Source: Streptomyces fuscigenes
Lineage (GTDB): Bacteria > Actinomycetota > Actinomycetes > Streptomycetales > Streptomycetaceae
Assembly (NCBI RefSeq): GCF_021556455.1
Contig: NZ_JAKGCV010000004.1
Location: forward strand, 1-58,839
Reading direction: 5' to 3'
Length of the DNA stretch: 58,839 bases
The notes below the pieces were generated by a model. The model saw nothing but the letters and a program-made list of their open reading frames with translations. It had not been told where the DNA came from and did no database searches. Positions 9,494 to 58,622 of the stretch are shown one piece after another. The position numbers were made by a program, and so were the translations under genes. Each line of letters begins with the position of its first letter. Position 1 is the first letter of the stretch.

Positions 9494-11134
9494 TCACCGC
9501 GTGCGGGAGCTCCCGCCGCCGATGGCGCGCCCGTACCGAGACGCCGCCCGGCCGCCCTGGCCACCGGGCTGACCGCGGCGGGCCGGGGAGTGCACGGCGG
9601 ACGCTTTCAGCCACTCCGCGGCGAACGCCATGACCACCGCGTCTCCGCGGTCCGGGGACCGGCCCAGCCGCTTCACCAGGTCCTCCTTCGGCTCCACCCG
9701 GATCTTCGGCGGGACGCCGGTGGTGGTGTCCCACATCGGGGCGGTGAGATCGGCCAGGAGCTCAGTGTCCGGGGGGAGCATCACCTCCGGCTCGTACGCG
9801 GGGTCCAGGAGCTCCCGCATGCGCCAGTAGGCGGCGGAGCGCGTGTTGACGAACCCCCACTCCCCGTCACGGGTGCGGGCGGTCGTCTTCGCGGCGCCGG
9901 TGTACGCGAGGACGGGGGCCTCCAGCTCGCGGAGGCGGTCCACGACGCCGCCGCCCACGCCGATGGAATCGACCACCGGCATGATCTCCCCGGCCTCTCC
10001 AGTGGCCGCCTGGACGCGCGCCACGGTGCGCATGGTGTCTTCCTTGTCGTGGGCCTCCAGGCCCGTGATGGTGACGCCCCAGCGGTGCGCGAGGATCGTG
10101 GAGTCTCCGCCCGCGCGGGCGACGTCCACGCCGGTGAAGCGCCGGCCCTCCAGCGGCGGGCGGCCGGCCAGGTCCCACACGTGCCACCGCTCCACGGCCG
10201 CCTCCACCCACGCGAGGGGGATCACGGAGTCCTCGTCCGACGCGTGGAACTCGCCCTCCACGCGGTTGGCGTACATCGCGGAGTCCCGGCCCCACTGGCG
10301 GGCGCGCTGCTGCGCCCACTCCGGGGAGATCCGGCCGGCCGCGATCGCCTCCGCGAGGGTGACGTGGCGGACCCACCAGTCCTCCAGCCCGGGTTTGCGG
10401 GAGTGGATGTCGTAGAACCGGCCGGCGGGCGGGCCGGGCGTGGAGATCGCGAACGCGAAGGCCTCCGGGAGCTCTCCCGGGGGTCCGTCCGTGTGGCCGC
10501 CGGAGAACGCGCCCTCGATGGCGTCCCAGGTGCCGTCCGGGACGATCTTGGCCTCGTCGATGAGGTAGAGCAGGGAGTCAGCGTGGGCGCCCTCGATGAG
10601 CTCCGGCTTATGGGATGCCACGGGCGTGGCGGCGCCGTTCTCCAGCTTGAGGTTCAGCGCCAGGAGCTCCGTCCGCTCGGAGAACGGCTCCCGGCCCACC
10701 TGGTCCCACCGGATGCGCTTCGCCCACTTCCTCAGCTCCGGGACCAGGTAGACGGAGAGGTGTCTCCACGCGGAGGCCGTCATGATCACCTTCCAGTCGA
10801 TCCCGGCGGCCTCCCGGGTGGTGGCAAACCAGAGCACGGCGATCGCGGCCATGCCGGTCTTCCCGAGGCCGTGAGGGCCCCGTGCGGCGACGCGGCGGTG
10901 CGCGGGGATCGCGGCCAGGCAATCGTCCTGGTAGGCCGTCAGGCCCTCGCCCGGCTCCCACGCGAGGCAGTCCCGGGCCCAGCCGACCGGGTCGTACATG
11001 TAGCGCAGGACCCGGCGGGAGTTCTGGCGGGAGCGGGCCCGGCGGACGACGTCCCGGACCTCCCTCAGGGCCGTGATGTCGCCGGTCGCCACCAGCGCGC
11101 GGACCTCCCGCTCCAGCTCGGCGCGGGACCTCAC
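9494..11134 (-). CDS. terL: Terminase large subunit
   Basis: A 546-residue packaging motor that translocates DNA into the prohead with its N-terminal ATPase and cuts concatemers with its C-terminal RNase H-like nuclease. Visible motifs: Walker A GPHGLGKT (86-93), Walker B LLYLIDEA (188-195, catalytic Glu 194), ISTP coupling motif (230-233), nuclease acidic residues in FTGVDVARAGGD (Asp 336) and MPVVDSIG (Asp 388), and a third Asp in SPDRGDAVV near the C-terminus. All catalytic residues are present. The GTG start overlaps the stop of the small terminase by 4 nt. It works with the portal at 4730-6463. Confidence 0.93.
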   Translation of the reverse strand: MRSRAELEREVRALVATGDITALREVRDVVRRARSRQNSRRVLRYMYDPVGWARDCLAWEPGEGLTAYQDDCLAAIPAHRRVAARGPHGLGKTGMAAIAVLWFATTREAAGIDWKVIMTASAWRHLSVYLVPELRKWAKRIRWDQVGREPFSERTELLALNLKLENGAATPVASHKPELIEGAHADSLLYLIDEAKIVPDGTWDAIEGAFSGGHTDGPPGELPEAFAFAISTPGPPAGRFYDIHSRKPGLEDWWVRHVTLAEAIAAGRISPEWAQQRARQWGRDSAMYANRVEGEFHASDEDSVIPLAWVEAAVERWHVWDLAGRPPLEGRRFTGVDVARAGGDSTILAHRWGVTITGLEAHDKEDTMRTVARVQAATGEAGEIMPVVDSIGVGGGVVDRLRELEAPVLAYTGAAKTTARTRDGEWGFVNTRSAAYWRMRELLDPAYEPEVMLPPDTELLADLTAPMWDTTTGVPPKIRVEPKEDLVKRLGRSPDRGDAVVMAFAAEWLKASAVHSPARRGQPGGQGGRAASRYGRAIGGGSSRTR

Positions 11135-11562
11135 GGACCCCCCTCCGCCCCGCCGTCAGCGTCGCTGCCGTCGAACATGGCAAGGATCTCTTCGCCGAGG
11201 CGCTGCGCCTCCAGGTTGACCCTGGTCGGGGCCTTCGTGCCCTCCACGTCCGCCCGGCCGGCCAGACACCGGAGGATCACGTCCGCTGCCTTCTTGTCCT
11301 TCTTCTGGATCGCGTCCGGCCAGAACGCGGCCTGTAGCCGGTCGTAGCGGGCCACCGTGAGGGCGCGCAGCTCCTCCACGTTCTCGTGCTGCTCCCGGAG
11401 GTTCGCTTTCAGGGCCTCGCTCACCGCGGTGCACGCGGCGCCGGGTGAGGCGTAGCCGACGCGGTCAGCGATCGTCGCCCAGTCCACCCCGGCGATGCGG
11501 AGCGCCGTGGCCTGCGCTCGTTTCTTCGCCGCGGCGGCGCGCTGCGCCTTCGATGCGCCCAT
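11131..11562 (-). CDS. terS: Terminase small subunit
   Basis: A 143-residue DNA-recognition subunit. A basic N-terminus (MGASKAQRAAAAKKRAQ) leads into a helix-turn-helix (residues about 18-50, ALRIAGVDWATIADRVGYASPGAACTAV), the usual TerS pac/cos-binding domain. A helical oligomerisation region follows, with AAFWPDAIQKKDKKAADVILRCL, a pattern common in actinophage TerS. The ATG has GAAAGGGGG just upstream. It directly precedes terL with a 4-nt overlap. The 86-bp gap before it contains an imperfect GC hairpin (about 11599-11639). Confidence 0.85.
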   Translation of the reverse strand: MGASKAQRAAAAKKRAQATALRIAGVDWATIADRVGYASPGAACTAVSEALKANLREQHENVEELRALTVARYDRLQAAFWPDAIQKKDKKAADVILRCLAGRADVEGTKAPTRVNLEAQRLGEEILAMFDGSDADGGAEGGP

Positions 11563-11648: not shown

Positions 11649-12449
11649 TTACATGCCGGTGGGGGTGGCGAACGCGCCGAGGACGCACCAGGAGTGCCAG
11701 CGGAAGAGGACTTCCGGGCAGCACCAGCCGGCCTCCTGGACGGCCTGGAGGAGGGTGGCTTCCGGGTAGGGCTGGAGGACACCGCGGAGGGCGCGGGCCT
11801 TCGCGCGGATCGCGGAGTCGGGGATGCCGTGCTGCTCCTTCCAGTCGTGGGAGGCGTCTCCGGCGATCTCCGCCCAGCGGGAGTCCGGGGGCCGTACCTT
11901 CTCCGCGACGATGAGCGCGCCGGTGGCGGCGGCGCCGGCGCGGGCGTTCGCCAGGGCCTTGACCCGGTCGCGGACGGGGAGGAACTGGAGGGTGAAGAGG
12001 GCCAGGGTGAGGTCCGCCCGGGCGTACTTCACGGCGGGCTCGCGGACGTCGCTGACGTCGTAGAGCGCGCTGAGGTTGGAGGCGCCGGAGAGTAGTTCCT
12101 CGGCGCGGGTGAGCATCGTGATTTCGCTGTCGATGAGGACCGCGTGGAGGGTGCGCTCCGGGTGGCGGGTGGCGATGCGGTGGACGGTGGTGCCGGTGGA
12201 GGCGCCGAGGTCGACCACCAGGCCGTCATCCGGGAGGAGCCAGTCCGCGGCCTCGGCCACCAGGTCCTGGATCGCGTCGTAGAACGGGACGGAGGCGCGG
12301 ACGTGCTCGGGGAAGACGGCGGTGACCTCGGGGGTGAACTGCCATCCGCCGCGGGGGAAGCGCTCCGCGATGTCCGGGCCGTCCTCCTCCCGTACGGCGC
12401 CGGAGGCGGGGGTGGTGGTGTCAGCCGTAGAGGCGGTGGTGTTCGGCAC
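11649..12449 (-). CDS. CmoA-like SAM-dependent enzyme (candidate carboxy-SAM synthase)
   Basis: A 266-residue class I methyltransferase fold that resembles CmoA along its length: GGWQFTPEVTAVFPEHV and SVPFYDAI near the start, SAM motif VVDLGASTGTT (78-88), LFTLQFLP (151-158), GALIVAEK (177-184), HDWKEQHGI (201-209). CmoA converts SAM plus prephenate into carboxy-SAM (Cx-SAM), in bacteria for tRNA cmo5U34. Aligned by eye with remembered E. coli CmoA, the residue at Arg199 is Ala 218, with Arg 219 next and Arg 215 nearby, so Cx-SAM synthesis is not certain. The GTG start, with GAGGT upstream, lies 29 nt inside the amidotransferase gene; the C5-methyltransferase is the next gene up. It may supply Cx-SAM to that enzyme. 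Alternative: a plain methyltransferase. Confidence 0.75.
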   Translation of the reverse strand: MPNTTASTADTTTPASGAVREEDGPDIAERFPRGGWQFTPEVTAVFPEHVRASVPFYDAIQDLVAEAADWLLPDDGLVVDLGASTGTTVHRIATRHPERTLHAVLIDSEITMLTRAEELLSGASNLSALYDVSDVREPAVKYARADLTLALFTLQFLPVRDRVKALANARAGAAATGALIVAEKVRPPDSRWAEIAGDASHDWKEQHGIPDSAIRAKARALRGVLQPYPEATLLQAVQEAGWCCPEVLFRWHSWCVLGAFATPTGM

Positions 12450-13833
12450 GGTAGTACCTCGCAGGGTCGGGGAGGGTGCGGGAGATGAGTGGCTTGAGGC
12501 CCAAGCCGTCCTGGAAGCCGACCTTCGGGCGGCGGGTGATGGAGGCGGGGAGCCGGTCGGCGTAGGCCGCGCTGAGGACGGCTTTGCGGCCGGCGGGGGT
12601 GTCGGCGTCTCGGACGACGTGCCGGGGCATGGAGAGGGCGAGGGTGACCAGCTCGGGGTCCAGGAACGGGAGGCGGGCCTCCACGCTGTGGGCCATGAAG
12701 GCTTTGTTGACGCGGGGGAAGTTCCGTACGGCCTGCGCGGCCACCAGGTGGCGGCGGTAGCCGTACCAGCCGGCCTCCGCGAGGCCCCGGTAGGCGTAGC
12801 CGTAGGAGGCCCAGAGCTCGTCCGAGCCCTCTCCGCTGTAGGTGACCTTGAAGCCGTCCGCGTGCATGCGGGCGGCGAGGGCGAGGCACGGCCAGGTGAT
12901 CTCCACCTGTGCCTTACGCGGCTGCTCGATGACCGCCAGGGCGTGGGTGAGGTCGTCCGCGGTGGGCGGCGCCACGTCCACCTCCACGAGCGTCACGCCC
13001 AGGGTCTCGGCGGCCTCACGGGCGCACCGTAGGTCTCGGGAGCGGGGGTCTAGGCGGGCGGTGTAGCAGGTGAGGCCGGGCCGGTGGCGGACGAGCTCGG
13101 CGACGATGGCGGCGGAGTCGAGGCCGCCGGAGAGGAGCGCGCACACGGGGACGTCGGCCACCAGGCGCCGGAACACGCCGCGCGCCAGGGCGCCCCGGAG
13201 CTCGCGGGCGGCGGTGTCCCGGGTGAGGGTGGGGTTCGGGGCGGCGGTGAGCTGGTGGTGGAGGTGCCGGCGGATGCTCCCGGCGGTGGAGAGTTCCCAC
13301 CACTGCCCGGCCGGTACGTCGACCACGGCCGGGCCGCAGCGCCGGCCGAGCGCCCGGAACGCTTTGAGCTCGGAGGCGACGAGGAGCGGGGCGGCCTGGT
13401 GGACGTGGAGGGGGACCTCGCCGTGGCGGTCGCGCGCCACGTGGAGGATGCCCGGGCGCCGGGCGTCGGTCCAGGCGAGGCCGTACATTCCGTCCAGGAG
13501 CGGGAGCGCCGTCTCGGGGCCGAGGACGTTCAGCGCGGCGGCCACGACCTCCGTATCCCCGCTGGTCGCCCAGGTGCGGCCGGGGGCTGCGTCCTCCACG
13601 CGGTCCGTGATGTCGTTCTGGTTGAACAGCTCCCCGTTGTAGACCAGGCACACGGGGCCGTCGCGATACGGCTGGTCCGCGCGGGCGGTCGGGTCCTGGA
13701 TCGCGAGGCGGGTGTGGCCGAGCGTCACCCCGCCCTCCTGAACCGTGGCGGCGGCGTCCGGGCCGCGGTGGTCGAGGGCGGCCACGGCCGCGGTGAGGTC
13801 CAGGGCGCCGGCGGCCGCGATGATGCCGCACAC
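12421..13833 (-). CDS. Asparagine-synthase-like glutamine amidotransferase
   Basis: A 470-residue class II glutamine amidotransferase / ATP-dependent synthetase. The N-terminal Ntn domain has the nucleophile Cys 2 (MCGII), RGPDA, RLAIQD (42-47), NGE (66-68) and GDTEV (92-96). The C-terminal PP-loop domain has SGGLDS (235-240), SGEGSDEL (333-340) and NKAFMAHSVEARLPFLDPEL. All parts needed to hydrolyse glutamine, adenylate a carboxylate and amidate it are present. It is shorter than typical AsnB (about 500-640). Lying between a DNA C5-methyltransferase and a CmoA-like enzyme, it is more likely to amidate a carboxylate on modified cytosine than to make asparagine for metabolism (inference). The GTG start is 2 bp past the methyltransferase stop. 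Confidence 0.85.
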   Translation of the reverse strand: MCGIIAAAGALDLTAAVAALDHRGPDAAATVQEGGVTLGHTRLAIQDPTARADQPYRDGPVCLVYNGELFNQNDITDRVEDAAPGRTWATSGDTEVVAAALNVLGPETALPLLDGMYGLAWTDARRPGILHVARDRHGEVPLHVHQAAPLLVASELKAFRALGRRCGPAVVDVPAGQWWELSTAGSIRRHLHHQLTAAPNPTLTRDTAARELRGALARGVFRRLVADVPVCALLSGGLDSAAIVAELVRHRPGLTCYTARLDPRSRDLRCAREAAETLGVTLVEVDVAPPTADDLTHALAVIEQPRKAQVEITWPCLALAARMHADGFKVTYSGEGSDELWASYGYAYRGLAEAGWYGYRRHLVAAQAVRNFPRVNKAFMAHSVEARLPFLDPELVTLALSMPRHVVRDADTPAGRKAVLSAAYADRLPASITRRPKVGFQDGLGLKPLISRTLPDPARYYRAEHHRLYG

Positions 13834-13834
13834 C

Positions 13835-15076
13835 TCAGATCACCCCGCGTTCGCGAAGCGGGATGAGGACCTGGTCCCGCACGGTCGCGGCGATGTGGCT
13901 CATCATCACCGGCGGGACCGCGCGGCCGATGCGCTCCCACCGCTGCTCATACGTCCCGGTGAGCTCGAAGTCCGGGGGGAACCCGCCGATGGCGCGGAGC
14001 TCCTGGAGGGTGAGTTTCCGGGCCTCGGCGTAGTGGGTCACGCCGGCCTTCGTGACGTGGCCGCCCTCCGCGCTGATCGTCTGGGCCGGCCGGTCCGGGG
14101 AGAGGCGCTTGAGGCTGAAGAACCGCTCCGAGGAGCCGCCGGGCGGGGTGTCACGCCAGGCCTCCCCGATCGCGTACCGGCTGATGGTGATGTCCTTCCC
14201 GGTCTCCGGGTCGTGCGTGACCTCCCCGGCTGGCGCCGGGTCGTGGACCTGGAAGTGACGGGAGTTCATGCCGCCCACGCCAACGGTGATCGCGGGGCTC
14301 GGCCTGTCCGTGACGTCGCCCTGGCCGCGCGCCCCGGACGTGTCGTGCACGAGGCGGGGGACGGCGGGGAGCGCGTCACGGACGGTGTACTGGTACGGGA
14401 GCGGCGCCGGGAAGGCGGGCTCCATGTTCAGGTCCTCGCGCACGCCCATGAAGATGAGGCGCTGCCGGGACTGCGGGACGCCGAGGCGGGAGGCGTCCAG
14501 GAGCCGCGCGGCCACGCGGTAGCCGGGGGCCTTGAGTGCGGACAGGATCTCCAGGAACATCCCCTTGGCCGTGCCCTTGACGAGGCCGCTCACGTTCTCG
14601 GCGACGAAGGTCCGCGGCTGGAGCTCGCTCAGGACGCGGGCGTACTCGAAGAACAGGTCGTCCACGCGCTGGTGGGTGTCGGAGTACGCCTTGACGGTGC
14701 CCCAGCCGGCCTCCCGCTTGCCCATGGTGGAGAACGCGGCGCATGGCGGGGACCCGTCGTAGAGGTCCAGCTCCCCCACGGCCAGGCCGGTGGCGGCGCA
14801 GATGTCCGCGCCGGTCACCTCGCGGATGTCCCGGGTGTCCAGCACGGTGTACGCCGCGGCGTTTGCGCGGTAGGTGTCCTGCGCTGCCGGGATGAACTCC
14901 GAGGCCCAGCGGACGCGGAAGCTGGCCATGCGGTAGCCGAGGGAGGAGCCGCCGCAGCCGCTGAACGTGGAGGCGGCAGTGAAGCCGTTCCACGGGAGTG
15001 CCCGGATCTCCTCCATGGACGGGACCCGGTACGGAGGCTTCGCCGCGGCCGGTGTCGCCGCGGACGGCCGCCGCAT
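13835..15076 (-). CDS. DNA cytosine-C5 methyltransferase with altered cofactor pocket
   Basis: A 413-residue C5-cytosine transferase with ordered motifs: I (FSGCGGSSLG, from residue 38), IV (GSPPCAAFS, nucleophile Cys 112), VI (AENVSG, Glu 160), VIII (QSRQRLIF), a target-recognition region (about 220-310), IX (RKLTLQELRAIGGFP) and X (RIGRAVPP). Two normally invariant residues differ. The Gln after the catalytic Cys (Q82 of M.HhaI) is Ala 113, and the motif X Asn (N304 of M.HhaI) is Arg 385. Those positions are changed in enzymes engineered for larger SAM analogues, and the second is the one mutated in M.MpeI N374K, which uses carboxy-SAM. ATG at 15076 overlaps the ParB-like stop (TGATG). Alternatively an ordinary anti-restriction methyltransferase with drifted motifs. 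Confidence 0.9.
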   Translation of the reverse strand: MRRPSAATPAAAKPPYRVPSMEEIRALPWNGFTAASTFSGCGGSSLGYRMASFRVRWASEFIPAAQDTYRANAAAYTVLDTRDIREVTGADICAATGLAVGELDLYDGSPPCAAFSTMGKREAGWGTVKAYSDTHQRVDDLFFEYARVLSELQPRTFVAENVSGLVKGTAKGMFLEILSALKAPGYRVAARLLDASRLGVPQSRQRLIFMGVREDLNMEPAFPAPLPYQYTVRDALPAVPRLVHDTSGARGQGDVTDRPSPAITVGVGGMNSRHFQVHDPAPAGEVTHDPETGKDITISRYAIGEAWRDTPPGGSSERFFSLKRLSPDRPAQTISAEGGHVTKAGVTHYAEARKLTLQELRAIGGFPPDFELTGTYEQRWERIGRAVPPVMMSHIAATVRDQVLIPLRERGVI

Positions 15077-15687
15077 CACTCCCCCGCCCCCGGGGCCGGC
15101 TTCCCGCTCCACGTGTAGGAGCACTTCGGACACTGGTACTCCGTGGGGATGTCCTCCCCGAACTGGGGGAACTCCTCCTCCCCCTCCTCCAGGGGCGGGA
15201 CGGCGTGCGCGATCTGGCGGACCTCGGCCTCCGTGTAGCCGGTGCCCTCGAACCCGTCGTCGTCCAGGTAGGACAGGAGCTCCGCCAGGGCGTCCCGGTC
15301 GTAGTCGCCCACATCGTTCGCCCGGTTGTCGACGAGGTTGATCCGGCGGGCGGTGTCGTCGTCGCAGACGATCACCTCCACGCGTGCGGCCGGCGTCCAG
15401 TCCTCGCCCTGGCAGACGCCACAGGGCCGTTCCTCACCCTGGTGGGTGGCGCGGTAGTCGCACGCGCCAGCGCCGTGGAGCTGGAGGGCCTGGAGCGTGT
15501 GGTTACCGGCCAGGACGACCAGCGGCCCGTCCGGCTGGACGTGACGGGCCACCAGGCCGCGATACTGCCCGTTTCGCTTGAGGCTGGAGAGGATGAGCTC
15601 CACGTCCCCGCGGCGGGCGTTGCCGGGGAACGGCTGGAGCTGGTCCAGGGGGACCGTGTCGGTACGGACGTGGGTGGAGGGCGGCAT
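15076..15687 (-). CDS. ParB-like nuclease-domain protein (copy 1)
   Basis: A 203-residue protein with an N-terminal ParB/sulfiredoxin-like domain: PLDQLQPFPGNARRGDVELILSSLKRNGQ, then LVVLAGNHTLQALQLHG (box II-like) and RRINLVDNRANDVGDYD. A Cys-containing insert (C ... PCGVC) splits the domain, and a CPKC pair near the end may bind zinc. Phages often carry ParB-like proteins next to DNA methyltransferases, with roles from nicking to DNA-modification partner. It heads the putative modification operon from a promoter-like block shared with the paralogue at 17263-18132. The ATG has AGGAG upstream. Confidence 0.8.
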   Translation of the reverse strand: MPPSTHVRTDTVPLDQLQPFPGNARRGDVELILSSLKRNGQYRGLVARHVQPDGPLVVLAGNHTLQALQLHGAGACDYRATHQGEERPCGVCQGEDWTPAARVEVIVCDDDTARRINLVDNRANDVGDYDRDALAELLSYLDDDGFEGTGYTEAEVRQIAHAVPPLEEGEEEFPQFGEDIPTEYQCPKCSYTWSGKPAPGAGE

Positions 15688-15802: not shown

Positions 15803-15850
15803 GCGGTTCAGCCTCGCGCGCCACCGCGGCCGGTCAGGATTCTGTTCATG
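15803..15850 (+). repeat. Conserved upstream block of paralogue 1
   Basis: About 45 bp upstream of the ATG at 15848 resembles 16504-16555 upstream of the second paralogue. It includes GTTCAGCC, a GC stretch and CAGGATTCTGTTCATGGA. GATTCT 10 to 5 nt before the ATG could be a -10 box for a leaderless transcript. The similarity shows that promoter and gene were duplicated together. Confidence 0.5.
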
Positions 15851-16453
15851 GACTCAACGATCACCGCAGCACTCGTAGGTTCCCCCGCTGTCCTGGTCAC
15901 CGCAGCGGCCGCATTTGGAGCGGGCCGGGTGCAGGGACGCGGGGCCGTGGACTCCGTGCGTCGGGCGTCACAGCGGGAGTCTTACGGAAAACTCCTGGCT
16001 GCCTGCTACACGTTCAGTTCCCAGGGCAGCCCCATCGCGGCCCGCCTCGGGAGCTGGCGACTCAACGCACCTGCCAACCCTCCGCTCCCGAATCTGATGA
16101 CCGCCCAGCAAGCGGCGGAGCTACTTGAGACCCTGGCGGAACGTATCGGTGAATGCGCAGCGGTGGTGCGGCTGGACGGCCCTCCGCACATCGCACGGCT
16201 CGCACACGATCTATGGGAGCAGGCGTCGAGTATCGCGGCGGAAGCCGTGCTGTACGTGCTCGCCCCTGAACGAATGACCGGGGCGCCGTTCGAGCACGCG
16301 GTCTTCTACGACAAAGCGGTGACGACCTTCGCGGAGGAGGCCAGCGCGTACCTGAATACGGGCCGCCTTCCCCGCTGGCGGCTTAGGACGCGACTTGCCC
16401 GTCGAGGTCGCCCGATCCGGTTGTCCGACGGGAGGACTGCCCCGGGTGAATAG
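15848..16453 (+). CDS. Single-pass membrane protein, tandem paralogue 1
   Basis: A 201-residue protein: an N-terminal hydrophobic anchor (MDSTITAALVGSPAVLVTAA), then GRVQGRGAVDSVRRASQRESYGKLLAACYTF and a helical domain ending in AEEASAYLNTGRLPRWRLRTRL. The family, with a short N-terminal membrane helix followed by an R-x-SQRE-SYG segment, recurs in Streptomyces genomes with no known role. It is divergent from the modification operon and paralogous to the gene at 16553-17176. The ATG is embedded in a conserved GGATTCTGTTCATG context shared with the paralogue. Confidence 0.65.
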   Translation: MDSTITAALVGSPAVLVTAAAAFGAGRVQGRGAVDSVRRASQRESYGKLLAACYTFSSQGSPIAARLGSWRLNAPANPPLPNLMTAQQAAELLETLAERIGECAAVVRLDGPPHIARLAHDLWEQASSIAAEAVLYVLAPERMTGAPFEHAVFYDKAVTTFAEEASAYLNTGRLPRWRLRTRLARRGRPIRLSDGRTAPGE

Positions 16454-16503: not shown

Positions 16504-16555
16504 TGAGCAGTTCAGCCACGCGGGCCGGGGGCGGCGGGCCAGGATTCTGTTCATG
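16504..16555 (+). repeat. Conserved upstream block of paralogue 2
   Basis: Second copy of the block described at 15803-15850, ending in CAGGATTCTGTTCATGGA at the start of the 16553 gene. Confidence 0.5.
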
Positions 16556-17176
16556 GACCCCGCGATCTCCGCCGCCTTGGTGGCCGTCCCCGCATCTCTC
16601 TTCGCCGCCGTGACCGCATACGGTGCGGGACGCGTCCAGGGACGAGGTGCGGTGGATTCCGTACGACGGGCGTCTCAGCGCGATTCGTACGCCCAATTCT
16701 TGTCCGCTTGCTGGGCGTTCAACGATGAGCTCCACCTATGGATGCATGCTGTTGACGGTCGGCCGTGGTCTTTCCATCCCCCACCGCCACCTCTTACTGG
16801 CAGTACCAGTGAGGCTCTCCAGAGGCTCGGTGAGCTGCAAGGTTCGATCGCAAAGCGCGCTGCCATCGTGGCGCTGGACGGGCCTCCGCCAATCGCCTCC
16901 ATTGCAGATCAGGCGAGACAGTGGGCAAGCAACATCATCTTTACCGCGCACACCGTCCACCGAACAGCGGACGTAGCGGAAGCGGAGCGTCTGCCCGTCT
17001 ACTACACGCTGGCTGATGAGGTCCGCGCCTTCCACTGGTCGGTCGCGCTCTTCGGGGAGGAGGCCAGTGCGCACCTGAATACCGGCCTCCTCCCCCGGTG
17101 GCGACTTAGGCCCCGGCTCCCCCTCCGAGAGAACCCCATCCGGCTAGCGGACGGGCGGACCACCCCAGACGAGTAG
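16553..17176 (+). CDS. Single-pass membrane protein, tandem paralogue 2
   Basis: A 207-residue paralogue of the preceding gene. It shares the N-terminal hydrophobic anchor (MDPAISAALVAVPASLFAAV), the almost identical GRVQGRGAVDSVRRASQRDSY segment, and the C-terminal FGEEASAHLNTGLLPRWRLRPRL and RLADGRTTPDE. The central parts have diverged strongly, so the ends are conserved and the middle variable. It is convergent with the second ParB-like gene. Function unknown; membrane anchoring of a soluble helical domain is the most that can be said. Confidence 0.65.
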   Translation: MDPAISAALVAVPASLFAAVTAYGAGRVQGRGAVDSVRRASQRDSYAQFLSACWAFNDELHLWMHAVDGRPWSFHPPPPPLTGSTSEALQRLGELQGSIAKRAAIVALDGPPPIASIADQARQWASNIIFTAHTVHRTADVAEAERLPVYYTLADEVRAFHWSVALFGEEASAHLNTGLLPRWRLRPRLPLRENPIRLADGRTTPDE

Positions 17177-17262: not shown

Positions 17263-18132
17263 TCATGAGACGTCCAAGCCAGCGGCCTTGAGGAGCGCAG
17301 CGACGGTGACCACGCTATCCGCTGTGTGCCGGGAGTCGATGACGGCGACGAGGGCGCGGAGCGCGCGGAGCACGATCTCCCCCGCCGGTAGGTCGGGGAG
17401 GACGTCGCGGGCGGCCGTGATGAGGCGGGAGGCCTCGTCCCCGTCCGCGACGGTGAGGACCACGGAGCCGCGTGCCGCCGGCGCGGGTGTGCCGCTGGTC
17501 GCGGGGACGCTCGAGGTGGCCGGGCCTCCAGTAGGTGACGCGGCGGTCGGGGAGGGCGCCTGGCTGCCGCTGGAGGGCTCGGGGGCGGGCGTGGGCTCCG
17601 GGGTGTCGTAGGGCTCGGGTTCGTCGGTCTCGGCCTCGGCCAGGTACTCCAGGAGGTCCGTGAGGTCGGTGTCCGTGTAGCCGGTGCCGGCGAGGTCTCC
17701 GTCCATGTCGTCCAGGAGCGCGGCGAGGGCGGCGTCGTCGTAGGAGCCGGCGTCCGAGGTGCGGTTATCGGCGAGGACGATGCGGCGGGCGGTGGCGTCG
17801 TCGCACTGGTAGATGGCGCACTGGGCGGCCGGCTTCCAGTCCTGGCCGTGGCAGAGGGCGCACGGGCGCTCCTCTTCACCGTGGCGGGTGATGAGGCCGC
17901 ACGGGCCGGGGCCGTGGGCGGCCATGGCCTGGAGGGTGTGGTTCCCGGCGAGGACGATCAGCTTCCCGTCCTCCAGCTCGCGCACCACCAGCGGCCGGAA
18001 CTGGCCGTTCGCGGTCAGGGACTCCAGGATCATGCCGACGTCGCCGCGGCGGGCGTTGCCGGGGTAGCCGGTGAGGTCGCCCAGGGGGTGGGTCTCCAGG
18101 CGCTGGAAGACGGCGCCGGGCGTGGTGGTCAT
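17263..18132 (-). CDS. ParB-like nuclease-domain protein (copy 2)
   Basis: A 289-residue paralogue of the 15076-15687 protein. The ParB-like domain matches closely (HPLGDLTGYPGNARRGDVGM, LIVLAGNHTLQAMAAHG, RRIVLADNRTSDAGSYD, then GTGYTDTDL), with the same Cys-bearing insert (C ... PCALC). A Pro/Ser/Thr-rich linker (about 165-215) leads to a helical C-terminal domain of about 70 residues that copy 1 lacks (about 217-289, VVLTVADGDEASRLITAARDV). The ATG has GGAGAGA upstream. Two ParB-like paralogues with the same promoter block flanking the membrane-protein pair imply a local duplication. Confidence 0.8.
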   Translation of the reverse strand: MTTTPGAVFQRLETHPLGDLTGYPGNARRGDVGMILESLTANGQFRPLVVRELEDGKLIVLAGNHTLQAMAAHGPGPCGLITRHGEEERPCALCHGQDWKPAAQCAIYQCDDATARRIVLADNRTSDAGSYDDAALAALLDDMDGDLAGTGYTDTDLTDLLEYLAEAETDEPEPYDTPEPTPAPEPSSGSQAPSPTAASPTGGPATSSVPATSGTPAPAARGSVVLTVADGDEASRLITAARDVLPDLPAGEIVLRALRALVAVIDSRHTADSVVTVAALLKAAGLDVS

Positions 18133-56252: not shown

Positions 56253-58469
56253 TCAGCCGTTGCGCTTCCAGCGCGGCTTGTCGTCACGGCGCCCGAACGA
56301 GCCGGTGCCGGTGCCCGTGCCGCCGCGGTGGTCGTCCCGACGGCCGTACGGGCGGTCCGAGGAGCCGCCGCGGTAGCCGCCGCCCGCCGGGCGGTCGCCC
56401 TGCCGGTCGCGGTTGAACGGACGGTCGCTGCCCCGGTGGTCGCGGCGCTCGAAGGTGCGGCCTCCGCGGTCGTCACGACGGTCGTCACGGCGGTCGCGGT
56501 TGAAGCCGCCACGGTCGTCACGGCGCTCGCCGCGGTCGTCACGGCGCTGGAACCCGCCCCGGTCGCCACGGTCGTCGCGGCGGAAGCCGCCGCGCTCGTC
56601 ACGGTCGTCACGGCGGAACCCGCCACGGTCGTCACGGCGGTCGCGGTTGAAGCCACCGCGGTCGTCACGGCGCTCCCCGCGGTCGTCGCGCCGCTGGAAC
56701 CCGCCGCGCTCACCGCGGTCGCCCCGGTCGTCGCGGCGGAACCCGCCACGGTCGCCGCGGTCACCGCGGTCGTCACGGCGGAACCCGCCACGGTCGTCAC
56801 GGCGCTCCGTGCCGGCGCGCTGCCGCTCGAAGTTGCCGCGCTCGTCGCGCCGCTGGCGCTGCTGCTCCGCCTCGGCGGCTGCGGCCTTGGCCGCGGCCTC
56901 CTCGATCGCGCGCTCGGCCTCGGCCTGCACCTCGGCGACCGCGGCCTCCGGGTCCTCCCCGCGTTCACGGGCGGCGCGCCCCACCAGGCGGCCCGCCTCC
57001 TCGCGCAGTTCGGTGGCGCGGCGCTGCGCGCGCTCCAGCTGCTTCGCCAGGTCGGCGACCTCGCGCTCGGCCTGCTTGGCCGCGTTGTTCGCGGAGTCGG
57101 CCTGCACCTCGGTCAGCGACCGCGCGCCGGTGATCTCGGCGACCTCGGGGTCGAACGCGCCCGCGCCGCCCACCATGTGGCGCGAGGCGTCGACGCCCGC
57201 GTCCTCCATCAGCCGGAAGATCTGGCGACGCTGGTGCGGCAGCGCCAGGGAGACGACGACGCCGGACTTGCCCGCGCGGGCCGTGCGGCCCGAGCGGTGC
57301 AGGTAGTCCTTGTGGTCGCCGGCCGGGTCGACGTTCAGCACCAGGTCGATGCCGTCGACGTGGATGCCGCGGGCGGCGACGTCGGTCGCGACGAGCGCGT
57401 TGACGTAGCCGTCCTTGAAGTCGGCCAGCGTGCGGGTCCTGGCGCCCTGCGTCATGCCGCCGTGCAGCGCGTCGGCCTTCACGCCGGAGTCGCGCAGCTG
57501 CTCCGCGATCCGGTCGGCGCCGAGCTGGGTCCGCACGAAGATGATCGTGCGGCCCTTGCGGGCGGCGATGGCGGCCGTGACGGGCGCCTTGTCCTTGGGC
57601 TTCACCACGAGCACGTGGTGGGACATCGTGGTGACGTTGCCCTGCGCGCTGTCGACCTCGTGGCTGACCGGGTCGGTCAGGTAGCGCTTGACCAGCGTGT
57701 TGATCTCGTTCTCCATGGTCGCGGAGAACAGCATCCGCTGGCCGCCCGACGGCACCAGGTCCAGCAGCTCGGTGACCTCGGGCAGGAAGCCCAGGTCGGA
57801 CATCTGGTCGGCCTCGTCGATGATCGCGACCTGGATCTGCTCCATCGAGGCGGCGCCGCGGTTGATGAGGTCGCGCAGGCGGCCGGGGGTGGCGACGAGG
57901 ATGTCGACGCCGCGCTCCAGCGCGTAGATCTGGTTGCCCATGGACGTGCCGCCGCAGACGACCTTCATCTTGAGGCCGAGGACGTCGCCGTACGGCTGGA
58001 GGGCGTCCGCGACCTGCATGGCGAGCTCGCGGGTCGGGGTGAGGATCACACCGCGGGGCTTCTTCTTCTCCGTGTGGCCGCCGGAGAGCGTGGCCAGCAG
58101 CGGGAGGCCGAAGGAGAGCGTCTTGCCGGAGCCGGTGCGGCCGCGGCCGAGGATGTCCTTGCCGGCCAGGGCGTCCGGGATGGTCGCGGCCTGGATCGGG
58201 AACGGGACGGTGACGCCGTTCTGGGCGAGCTTGCGCACGATGGACTCGGGCAGGCCCAGGTCCGCGAACGTGGTCTCGGGGGCCGCGTCGGTCTCGTCGA
58301 GGCCGGCGGCGTCCGTCGCTTCGTCCTCGGTGAGGGCGTCGTCGACGCCGTGGTCGGCGGCGGCGGTCTCGACGGCGTCTGCGGTGTCTACGGCATCTGC
58401 GGCATCGACGATGTCGTCGTGGGAGTCGTTCTCGGGCATGACGGCGTGGTCAGTACTGGAAACGGACAT
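56253..58469 (-). CDS. DEAD-box RNA helicase with RGG-like tail (host gene)
   Basis: A 738-residue ATP-dependent RNA helicase of the bacterial DEAD-box family, acting in RNA unwinding and cold or ribosome-assembly functions. Motifs in order: Q (FPIQAATIPD), I (GRTGSGKT), Ia (PTRELAMQ), GG, Ib (TPGRL), II (DEAD), III (SAT), IV-V (VATDVAARGIHVDG), VI (HRSGRTAR). An acidic Ala/Asp-rich N-terminus (about 60 residues) and, after about residue 480, a coiled region followed by roughly 200 residues of RDDRGGF-type repeats, encoded by near-identical DNA repeats at about 56420-56830, which form an RNA-binding RGG-like tail. The ATG after GGAAGG at 58469 is preferred; an upstream ATG adds 18 residues. 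Confidence 0.92.
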   Translation of the reverse strand: MSVSSTDHAVMPENDSHDDIVDAADAVDTADAVETAAADHGVDDALTEDEATDAAGLDETDAAPETTFADLGLPESIVRKLAQNGVTVPFPIQAATIPDALAGKDILGRGRTGSGKTLSFGLPLLATLSGGHTEKKKPRGVILTPTRELAMQVADALQPYGDVLGLKMKVVCGGTSMGNQIYALERGVDILVATPGRLRDLINRGAASMEQIQVAIIDEADQMSDLGFLPEVTELLDLVPSGGQRMLFSATMENEINTLVKRYLTDPVSHEVDSAQGNVTTMSHHVLVVKPKDKAPVTAAIAARKGRTIIFVRTQLGADRIAEQLRDSGVKADALHGGMTQGARTRTLADFKDGYVNALVATDVAARGIHVDGIDLVLNVDPAGDHKDYLHRSGRTARAGKSGVVVSLALPHQRRQIFRLMEDAGVDASRHMVGGAGAFDPEVAEITGARSLTEVQADSANNAAKQAEREVADLAKQLERAQRRATELREEAGRLVGRAARERGEDPEAAVAEVQAEAERAIEEAAAKAAAAEAEQQRQRRDERGNFERQRAGTERRDDRGGFRRDDRGDRGDRGGFRRDDRGDRGERGGFQRRDDRGERRDDRGGFNRDRRDDRGGFRRDDRDERGGFRRDDRGDRGGFQRRDDRGERRDDRGGFNRDRRDDRRDDRGGRTFERRDHRGSDRPFNRDRQGDRPAGGGYRGGSSDRPYGRRDDHRGGTGTGTGSFGRRDDKPRWKRNG
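56420..56830 (-). repeat. Tandem GGF/RDDRG-coding repeats in the helicase gene
   Basis: Roughly a dozen imperfect repeats of about 24-33 bp (CGGTCGTCACGGCGG-type on the plus strand) encode the RDDRGGF/RRDDRGE units. They are prone to copy-number change and create long spurious open frames on the opposite strand. Confidence 0.8.
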
Positions 58470-58622
58470 GCGAAATGCGAAACCTTCCGGAGTCTCGGCA
58501 CGCGCCCAAACTCCGTGTTTCACCTCTCGACCGCCTCGATGCGGTCAGCCACGGTAAGGGAGAGTACGCGCCACACGGCGCTCTTCTTTTTCGGCGCCGG
58601 GGAAATGATCAAACGATCTACT

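What the first reader, a model, noticed from the sequence alone, without database searches (positions are those of the whole stretch)
11649..15687. Putative phage pathway for 5-carboxymethyl- and 5-carbamoylmethyl-cytosine
Four overlapping genes in one operon: ParB-like, C5-cytosine methyltransferase, asparagine-synthase-like amidotransferase, CmoA-like enzyme, directly upstream of terminase. Known chemistry: CmoA makes carboxy-SAM (Cx-SAM); class II amidotransferases turn carboxylates into amides. Inference: Cx-SAM is used by the C5 enzyme to put carboxymethyl on cytosine in DNA, and the amidotransferase converts it to carbamoylmethyl, hiding phage DNA from restriction nucleases. The end product resembles Mu Mom chemistry (acetamido-adenine), on cytosine. 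I know of no described natural system with this trio.
Basis: partly seen in the sequence, partly recalled or inferred. Interest (0 to 1): 0.93.

Follow-up and report, generated by a model that had tools for sequence, protein, structure and literature searches.

The report
Phage amide mark on DNA cytosine
This phage carries four neighbouring genes that are predicted to put a small acid group on cytosines of its DNA and then likely turn it into an amide; a close version of the first step was proven in another phage in 2025, so this is a variant of a known system whose end product is still unmeasured.

Summary
In detail: four intact, adjoining genes (ParB-like, C5-cytosine methyltransferase homologue, asparagine-synthetase-like amidotransferase, CmoA homologue) lie just upstream of terminase on a contig colinear with temperate Streptomyces phage TurkishDelight. 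The chemistry is largely supported, but "no described natural system" is outdated: Yang et al. 2025 (PMC12783734) proved CmoA + CmoX + CmoY in phage S-B43 (5-carboxymethylcytosine, then a glycine amide) and predicted, untested, a glutamine-fed CmoY cluster. The window's methyltransferase has the Cx-SAM arginine and matches that CmoX best. New here: (1) viral contigs otherwise up to 90% identical to the S-B43 cassette carry a glutamine-fed CmoY exactly where S-B43 has its glycine ligase, so both very likely act on the same group; (2) K307, E311 and Q441 mark both ligase types (E311 in 64 of 66) but none of ten unlinked relatives; (3) the arginine tracks CmoA (104 of 105 Arg clusters, 0 of 17 Asn clusters), with only one or two independent switches on the tree. 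Against: the E. coli CmoA carboxylate arginine is alanine here, though the proven phage CmoA lacks it too. The end product is most likely 5-carbamoylmethylcytosine; it has not been measured.

The parts
15076..15687 (-). ParB-like protein, 203 aa; ParB/sulfiredoxin fold, conserved GNHT where the Box II arginine motif is expected, C-terminal CPKC
13835..15076 (-). CmoX: predicted DNA cytosine C5-carboxymethyltransferase, 413 aa from ATG 15076
   Evidence: best PDB match 8yf3 (SpCmoX) E 4.7e-59, next 1dct 3.8e-22; 84.9% to TurkishDelight gp123
14741..14743 (-). codon of the catalytic Cys of SPPC (Cys112 of 413 aa)
   Evidence: alignment; conserved in 120 of 120 listed rows, the window's among them
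13922..13924 (-). codon of the motif X arginine (IGRAVPP, Arg385 of 413 aa) aligned with Arg350 of SpCmoX, the Cx-SAM carboxylate ligand
   Evidence: Arg in 120 of 120 listed rows, the window's among them
12421..13833 (-). CmoY, glutamine-dependent type: class II GATase domain plus asparagine-synthetase-like ATP domain, 470 aa; predicted to amidate the carboxymethyl group
13828..13830 (-). codon of the glutaminase Cys (residue 2)
   Evidence: Cys present in 81 of 81 CmoY frames, of 85 loci, whose N terminus lies inside the contig
11649..12449 (-). CmoA homologue: predicted Cx-SAM synthase, 266 aa
   Evidence: TIGR00740 3e-26, below cut-off; PDB 1im8 and 4gek CmoA; 75.2% to TurkishDelight gp125
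11131..11562 (-). small gene before the large terminase (TurkishDelight gp1 counterpart, annotated HTH DNA-binding protein); probably small terminase, by position
   Evidence: phrog_645, labelled 'Rnase E', 1.1e-29
9494..11134 (-). large terminase subunit
   Evidence: phrog_2 6.4e-43
17263..18132 (-). second ParB-like protein (TurkishDelight gp121 counterpart), same strand, upstream
   Evidence: phrog_723 1.9e-46; 70.2% identity

Best explanation
The operon is predicted to write an amide-bearing cytosine into phage DNA: CmoA likely makes carboxy-SAM from SAM and prephenate, CmoX likely transfers its carboxymethyl group to cytosine C5 in DNA, and CmoY would then activate that carboxylate with ATP and amidate it with ammonia taken from glutamine, giving 5-carbamoylmethylcytosine. 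CmoX is held to Cx-SAM by the motif X arginine that replaces the usual asparagine. CmoY hydrolyses glutamine in its N-terminal domain and passes ammonia to the acyl-adenylate of the base. The ParB-like protein goes with this methyltransferase lineage whatever group is transferred, so it more likely helps the enzyme handle DNA than takes part in the chemistry. The genes sit beside terminase, which fits modification before packaging and protection from nucleases. Shown here: sequence, residues, linkage, gene swap. Inferred from a proven relative: the CmoA and CmoX reactions. Inferred only: the ammonia product, the ParB role, the protective role.
For: CmoX: best structure match is SpCmoX 8yf3, with Arg aligned to Arg350, shown in PMC12783734 to bind the Cx-SAM carboxylate in an enzyme that gives 5cxmC. 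Over 122 non-redundant clusters, CmoA lies in the stretch held around 104 of 105 Arg-type and 0 of 17 Asn-type genes; 84 of 85 and 0 of 17 for clusters whose representative came from a CmoX scan. Linkage: of 80 CmoY-selected viral loci, 77 have CmoA and 69 a CmoX with Arg; the three without CmoA hold a CmoA fragment at a contig edge. Swap: 23 of those 80 loci have CmoX at least 90% identical to SpCmoX, all 23 with a glutamine-type CmoY and none with a SpCmoY-like gene; in 20 of the 23 a near-full CmoA is at least 85% identical too. In 8 of 8 loci compared base by base (7 of the 23, plus L072 with CmoX at 76%), homology to S-B43 stops at the end of CmoA, is absent over the SpCmoY gene and resumes at CmoX. 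Pocket: K307 45/45 and 21/21, E311 45/45 and 19/21, Q441 45/45 and 21/21 in glutamine-type and glycine-type CmoY, 0 of 10 in unlinked AsnB-like proteins; E. coli and human enzymes have Arg at the E311 site. GATase Cys in 81 of 81 complete frames. Host: none of 150 genomes of the genus, own included, has CmoA over the cut-off; own genome has no CmoB-family match over the cut-off.
Against: No biochemistry for any glutamine-type CmoY was found; the published attempt gave no soluble enzyme (PMC12783734). E. coli CmoA Arg199, the Cx-SAM carboxylate ligand (PMC3663124), aligns with Ala218 here (column table); the proven SpCmoA has Glu there, so the test does not separate. CmoA scores 92.6 bits, under the TIGR00740 cut-off of 193.3. 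The Arg/CmoA tally rests on only two changes on the tree, one of them forced by well-supported branches. The swap is in S-B43-like contigs; the window's CmoY is about 37-41% identical to those. The own genome has one CmoB-family match just under the cut-off (20.7 against 23.8 bits, partial) and is 91% complete. The target sequence of this CmoX is unknown: its recognition region was not aligned with SpCmoX.
Confidence: 0.77

Rival explanations
1. Same first two steps, but CmoY joins the carboxymethyl group to another amine (glycine, another small amine, hydroxylamine) and its glutaminase domain is a relic or serves another nucleophile.
Against: Glutaminase Cys in 81 of 81 complete frames; C2, R42, G67, E68 and D93 invariant in 32 of 32 aligned rows; SpCmoY lacks the whole domain (271 aa).
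Confidence: 0.1
2. CmoY is inactive or limiting in this phage and 5-carboxymethylcytosine is the final base.
For: 50 of 105 Arg-type CmoX clusters have neither ligase type in the stretch held.
Against: CmoY is intact and under purifying selection (dN 0.20, dS 0.42) and is kept in TurkishDelight and in Streptomyces and Nonomuraea genome loci.
Confidence: 0.06
3. CmoX is an ordinary 5-methylcytosine methyltransferase; CmoA and CmoY modify tRNA or a small molecule for the lysogen.
For: CmoA is a tRNA-pathway enzyme in Gram-negatives (PMC4482062); AsnB-like enzymes serve many small-molecule pathways (recalled; for such families among weak matches).
Against: Arg in motif X in 120 of 120 listed rows; no CmoB-family match over the cut-off in the own genome; CmoA absent beside 17 of 17 Asn-type relatives; tight linkage of the three genes.
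Confidence: 0.03
4. The chemistry is as above, but the mark is regulatory (packaging signal, transcription timing or prophage state) and not a shield against restriction.
For: The cassette lies by terminase here and in Moraxella phage Mcat8 (ParB, CmoX with GRMVAP, CmoA, one gene, terminase); in TurkishDelight it is at the end of the record that opens with terminase. ParB-like neighbours are frequent (90 of 105 Arg-type, 17 of 17 Asn-type clusters).
Against: 5cxmC blocks HhaI in vitro (PMC12783734); S-B43 has no terminase annotated in the 11 kb around its cassette.
Confidence: 0.15

Closest known systems
CmoA-CmoX-CmoY of Synechococcus phage S-B43 (Yang et al. 2025, PMC12783734)
   Same: Same three functions in one operon; CmoX with SPPC and the motif X Arg; CmoA homologue; AsnB-like ligase
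   Different: S-B43 CmoY is 271 aa, has no glutaminase domain and adds glycine (5gcxmC); gene order CmoA-CmoY-CmoX; no ParB gene annotated or found in the 11 kb around it
Second-largest CmoY cluster of the same paper (A0A7T0Q3R0)
   Same: Glutamine-hydrolysing domain; authors suggest glutamine-derived ammonia as substrate
   Different: Untested and insoluble in their hands; I could not check whether that accession is TurkishDelight gp124 or how near the window lies to it
Phage Mu Mom (recalled, no call)
   Same: Same substituent, carbamoylmethyl (acetamido), on a phage DNA base
   Different: On adenine N6, by an unrelated enzyme
Engineered M.MpeI N374K (as cited in PMC12783734)
   Same: Basic residue lets a C5-MTase use Cx-SAM, mirrored by the CmoX arginine
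   Different: Man-made, lysine instead of arginine, CG target, no amidation
CmoA-CmoB tRNA pathway of Gram-negatives (PMC4482062, PMC3663124)
   Same: CmoA makes Cx-SAM from SAM and prephenate
   Different: Acceptor is ho5U in tRNA via CmoB; no CmoB-family match over the cut-off in this genome
5-carbamoyloxymethylcytosine (PMC8670742)
   Same: Carbamoyl-bearing cytosine in DNA
   Different: A carbamate on a hydroxymethyl group made by a carbamoyltransferase; another chemistry and another enzyme

Membership tests
CmoX (DNA cytosine C5-carboxymethyltransferase) | homology to SpCmoX with SPPC | tested here: met
   8yf3 E 4.7e-59, best of 45 PDB sequences; SPPC aligned
CmoX (DNA cytosine C5-carboxymethyltransferase) | Arg350 equivalent in motif X | tested here: met
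   IGRAVPP aligned with VGRMVPP; 120 of 120 listed rows, own included
CmoX (DNA cytosine C5-carboxymethyltransferase) | uses Cx-SAM and not SAM, makes 5cxmC | not testable with these tools
   needs enzyme assay
CmoA (Cx-SAM synthase) | homology to CmoA over most of its length | tested here: met
   1im8 3.6e-17 (residues 34-250) and 4gek 5.5e-16 (33-253)
CmoA (Cx-SAM synthase) | score over the curated TIGR00740 cut-off | tested here: not met
   92.6 against 193.3 bits
CmoA (Cx-SAM synthase) | Arg199 carboxylate ligand of E. coli CmoA | tested here: not met
   Ala218 here; among 105 representatives of fetched loci the column is E 47, R 31, A 19, S 4, rest other or gap; proven SpCmoA has Glu by my reading of its sequence. 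So filed as CmoA-like, phage branch, and not as orthodox CmoA
CmoA (Cx-SAM synthase) | makes Cx-SAM | not testable with these tools
   needs enzyme assay
CmoY | AsnB-like ATP-dependent ligase linked to CmoA and CmoX | tested here: met
CmoY | pocket residues shared with proven SpCmoY (K307, E311, Q441; proposed here) | tested here: met
CmoY | ligates an amine to 5cxmC in DNA | not testable with these tools
   needs LC-MS
Asparagine synthetase B | over the NCBIfam equivalog cut-off and AsnB stretch TTIRAS | tested here: not met
   TIGR01536 232.8 against 267.1 bits; KAQVEI in its place, Arg replaced by E311
ParB CTPase | ParB/Srx fold | tested here: met
ParB CTPase | Box II arginine needed for nucleotide binding (PMC12704722, passages read) | tested here: inconclusive
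   AGNHT at the likely Box II position, N62 H63 T64 invariant in 28 of 28 rows; placing it at Box II is my reading by eye

The most novel reading that the evidence does not exclude
5-Carbamoylmethylcytosine is a new natural DNA base, made by a glutamine-fed, asparagine-synthetase-like enzyme that amidates a carboxymethyl group on DNA. The ligase slot of this cassette is exchangeable, so otherwise near-identical phages switch their DNA between a glycyl-amide and a plain amide by swapping one gene, as would fit escape from hosts that learn to attack one version.
Probability: 0.6. Interest if true: 0.72.

Novelty: new variant of a known kind. Interest (0 to 1): 0.52.

Why it matters
It would add a DNA base for which my searches found no report, with the same substituent as Mu's acetamido-adenine (recalled) but reached by an unrelated two-enzyme route. 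The ligase swap makes the untested suggestion of PMC12783734 about ammonia-using ligases directly testable with proven partners (S-B43 CmoA and CmoX), and the three shared pocket residues name targets. Amidation removes the negative charge that carboxymethylation adds, which could matter for packaging, for polymerases and for recognition by nucleases (inference).

Tried and rejected
The idea that CmoA serves tRNA in the host was dropped: 0 of 150 genomes of the genus, own included, have CmoA over the cut-off (70 of 150 have matches at E <= 0.001; apart from the window's own, 92.4 bits, the best is 35.2 bits and partial), and the one CmoB-family match in the own genome is just under its cut-off (20.7 against 23.8 bits, partial). 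The idea that ParB is part of the carboxymethyl chemistry was dropped: it is beside 17 of 17 Asn-type enzymes without CmoA. The idea that the operon abuts a cos end was dropped: the TurkishDelight record opens at gene 1 with the operon at its other end, and I have no evidence of its end type. A first genome scan with CmoY alone gave no relative; the alignment scan gave 13, of which 8 are weak AsnB-like proteins with no CmoA or CmoX, and one closer one (L101, Chloroflexi MAG, 45%) also lacks both. Arg199 as proof of CmoA function failed as a test, since the proven SpCmoA lacks it too. The p-value of the Arg/CmoA table is not used as such, because the tree shows only two changes; the test of independent pairs had 1 pair on starred branches and could not reach significance. 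Target sequence of CmoX: not predicted, no usable alignment of the recognition region.

Papers: PMC12783734, outline and parts 1-3 of 8 (abstract to the first methods sections); PMC4482062, PMC3663124, PMC8670742 and PMC12704722, passages only; the rest search listings only. Mom and general AsnB knowledge are recalled. No supplementary file was read.
Full report
WHAT IS THERE. The window is contig C444 (1-58839) of an unnamed 6.37 Mb assembly in 811 contigs. It is colinear with Streptomyces phage TurkishDelight (34% of the first 25 kb at 80.0% identity; 23% of the next 25 kb at 78.5%), whose record carries a tyrosine integrase and an immunity repressor. The contig's left end corresponds to the TurkishDelight head genes; a TurkishDelight-like tape measure gene (61% in its best piece) lies on another contig, C11, so the phage seems split over contigs. 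On the minus strand stand ParB-like, CmoX, CmoY and CmoA, then a small gene (probably small terminase, by position) and the large terminase. TurkishDelight has the same order, with 85.8, 83.5, 73.2 and 74.2% protein identity, and dN well below dS in all four.

STEP 1, CARBOXYMETHYL TRANSFER. The closest solved structure to the methyltransferase is 8yf3, SpCmoX of Synechococcus phage S-B43 (E 4.7e-59; the next, HaeIII methylase, is 3.8e-22). SpCmoX makes 5-carboxymethylcytosine with Cx-SAM, and its Arg350 replaces the HhaI asparagine and holds the carboxylate (PMC12783734). The window has IGRAVPP with that arginine; all 120 listed rows (own protein included) of 5247 hits share it, with SPPC, AENV and QxRxR. 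I tested whether the arginine goes with CmoA. In 122 non-redundant clusters from three viral scans and one genome scan, CmoA lies in the stretch held for 104 of 105 Arg-type genes and 0 of 17 Asn-type genes; for clusters represented by a locus from the CmoX scans it is 84 of 85 and 0 of 17. The one exception, L138, has its CmoX frame starting at base 2 of the contig. The limit: the Asn types are one clade of 16 plus one single row, two changes on the tree, one forced by strong branches. The association is clean, but the independent events are few.

STEP 0, THE COFACTOR. The CmoA homologue matches CmoA over most of its length but falls under the curated cut-off, and E. coli Arg199, which holds the Cx-SAM carboxylate (PMC3663124), is Ala218. 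In SpCmoA, proven active, the site is Glu by my reading (sequence); over 105 representatives it is E 47, R 31, A 19, S 4, while the neighbouring lysine is kept in 102. So this residue cannot decide. No genome of 150 in the genus has CmoA over the cut-off, and the own assembly, 91% complete, has no CmoB-family match over the cut-off (one partial match at 20.7 against 23.8 bits): a phage here would likely have to bring its own Cx-SAM synthase, and a tRNA role is unlikely.

HOW COMMON. Among 105 Arg-type clusters, 43 have a glutamine-type CmoY, 12 a glycine-type and 50 neither in the DNA held; among the 85 represented by CmoX-scan loci the split is 23, 12 and 50. Amidation is thus one of several fates of the mark. 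Many loci are cut by contig ends, so 50 is an upper bound for 'neither'.

PARB. The ParB-like protein has the ParB/sulfiredoxin fold but GNHT where the nucleotide-binding arginine motif is expected (PMC12704722, passages). A ParB-like gene is in the stretch held for 90 of 105 Arg-type and 17 of 17 Asn-type genes, so it follows the methyltransferase and not the carboxymethyl chemistry. PMC12783734 also calls its function unknown.

NOVELTY. My searches (open-licence PMC only, no preprints) found no paper that reports 5-carbamoylmethylcytosine in DNA or an active glutamine-type CmoY. I call this a new variant of a known kind: the system is known, and the variant was foreseen but not shown.

Noticed in passing
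L002 and L278 (Gordonia phage Evaa, OP434461): gp1-gp6: A CmoA homologue (51% to the window's) sits right before terminase with a ParB gene upstream, but no C5-methyltransferase is found in 59.9 of 61.2 kb; gp2 is annotated as a ParB-methyltransferase fusion, of unknown PHROG (phrog_5475), with a methyltransferase-like motif by eye. A candidate for a different Cx-SAM-dependent DNA transferase.
   Followed up: partly
L139, L193-L195, L201, L206 and others (17 clusters): A clade inside the CmoX family (and one single row) has Asn at motif X, lacks CmoA and CmoY but keeps the ParB neighbour: probably a return to plain methylation.
   Followed up: partly
L191 (Moraxella phage Mcat8): ParB, CmoX with Arg (GRMVAP) and a CmoA homologue that tblastn at 1e-5 did not list, one gene before terminase, no ligase found: probably a maker of unamidated 5cxmC.
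   Followed up: partly
L091, L092, L093, L095: S-B43-like contigs with two Arg-type CmoX genes side by side after a glutamine-type CmoY; perhaps two target sequences.
   Followed up: no
window 15848-16453 and 16553-17176, + strand: Two tandem, similar open frames without any Pfam or PHROG match lie between the two ParB-like genes, against the direction of the operon.
   Followed up: no
window 56253-58523: DEAD/DEAH helicase with an RDM3_C-type C terminus beyond the repressor, where TurkishDelight has its integrase; may be host DNA or another module.
   Followed up: no
L101 (Chloroflexi MAG contig): A 45% identical glutamine-type CmoY with neither CmoA nor CmoX in the 12 kb held.
   Followed up: no
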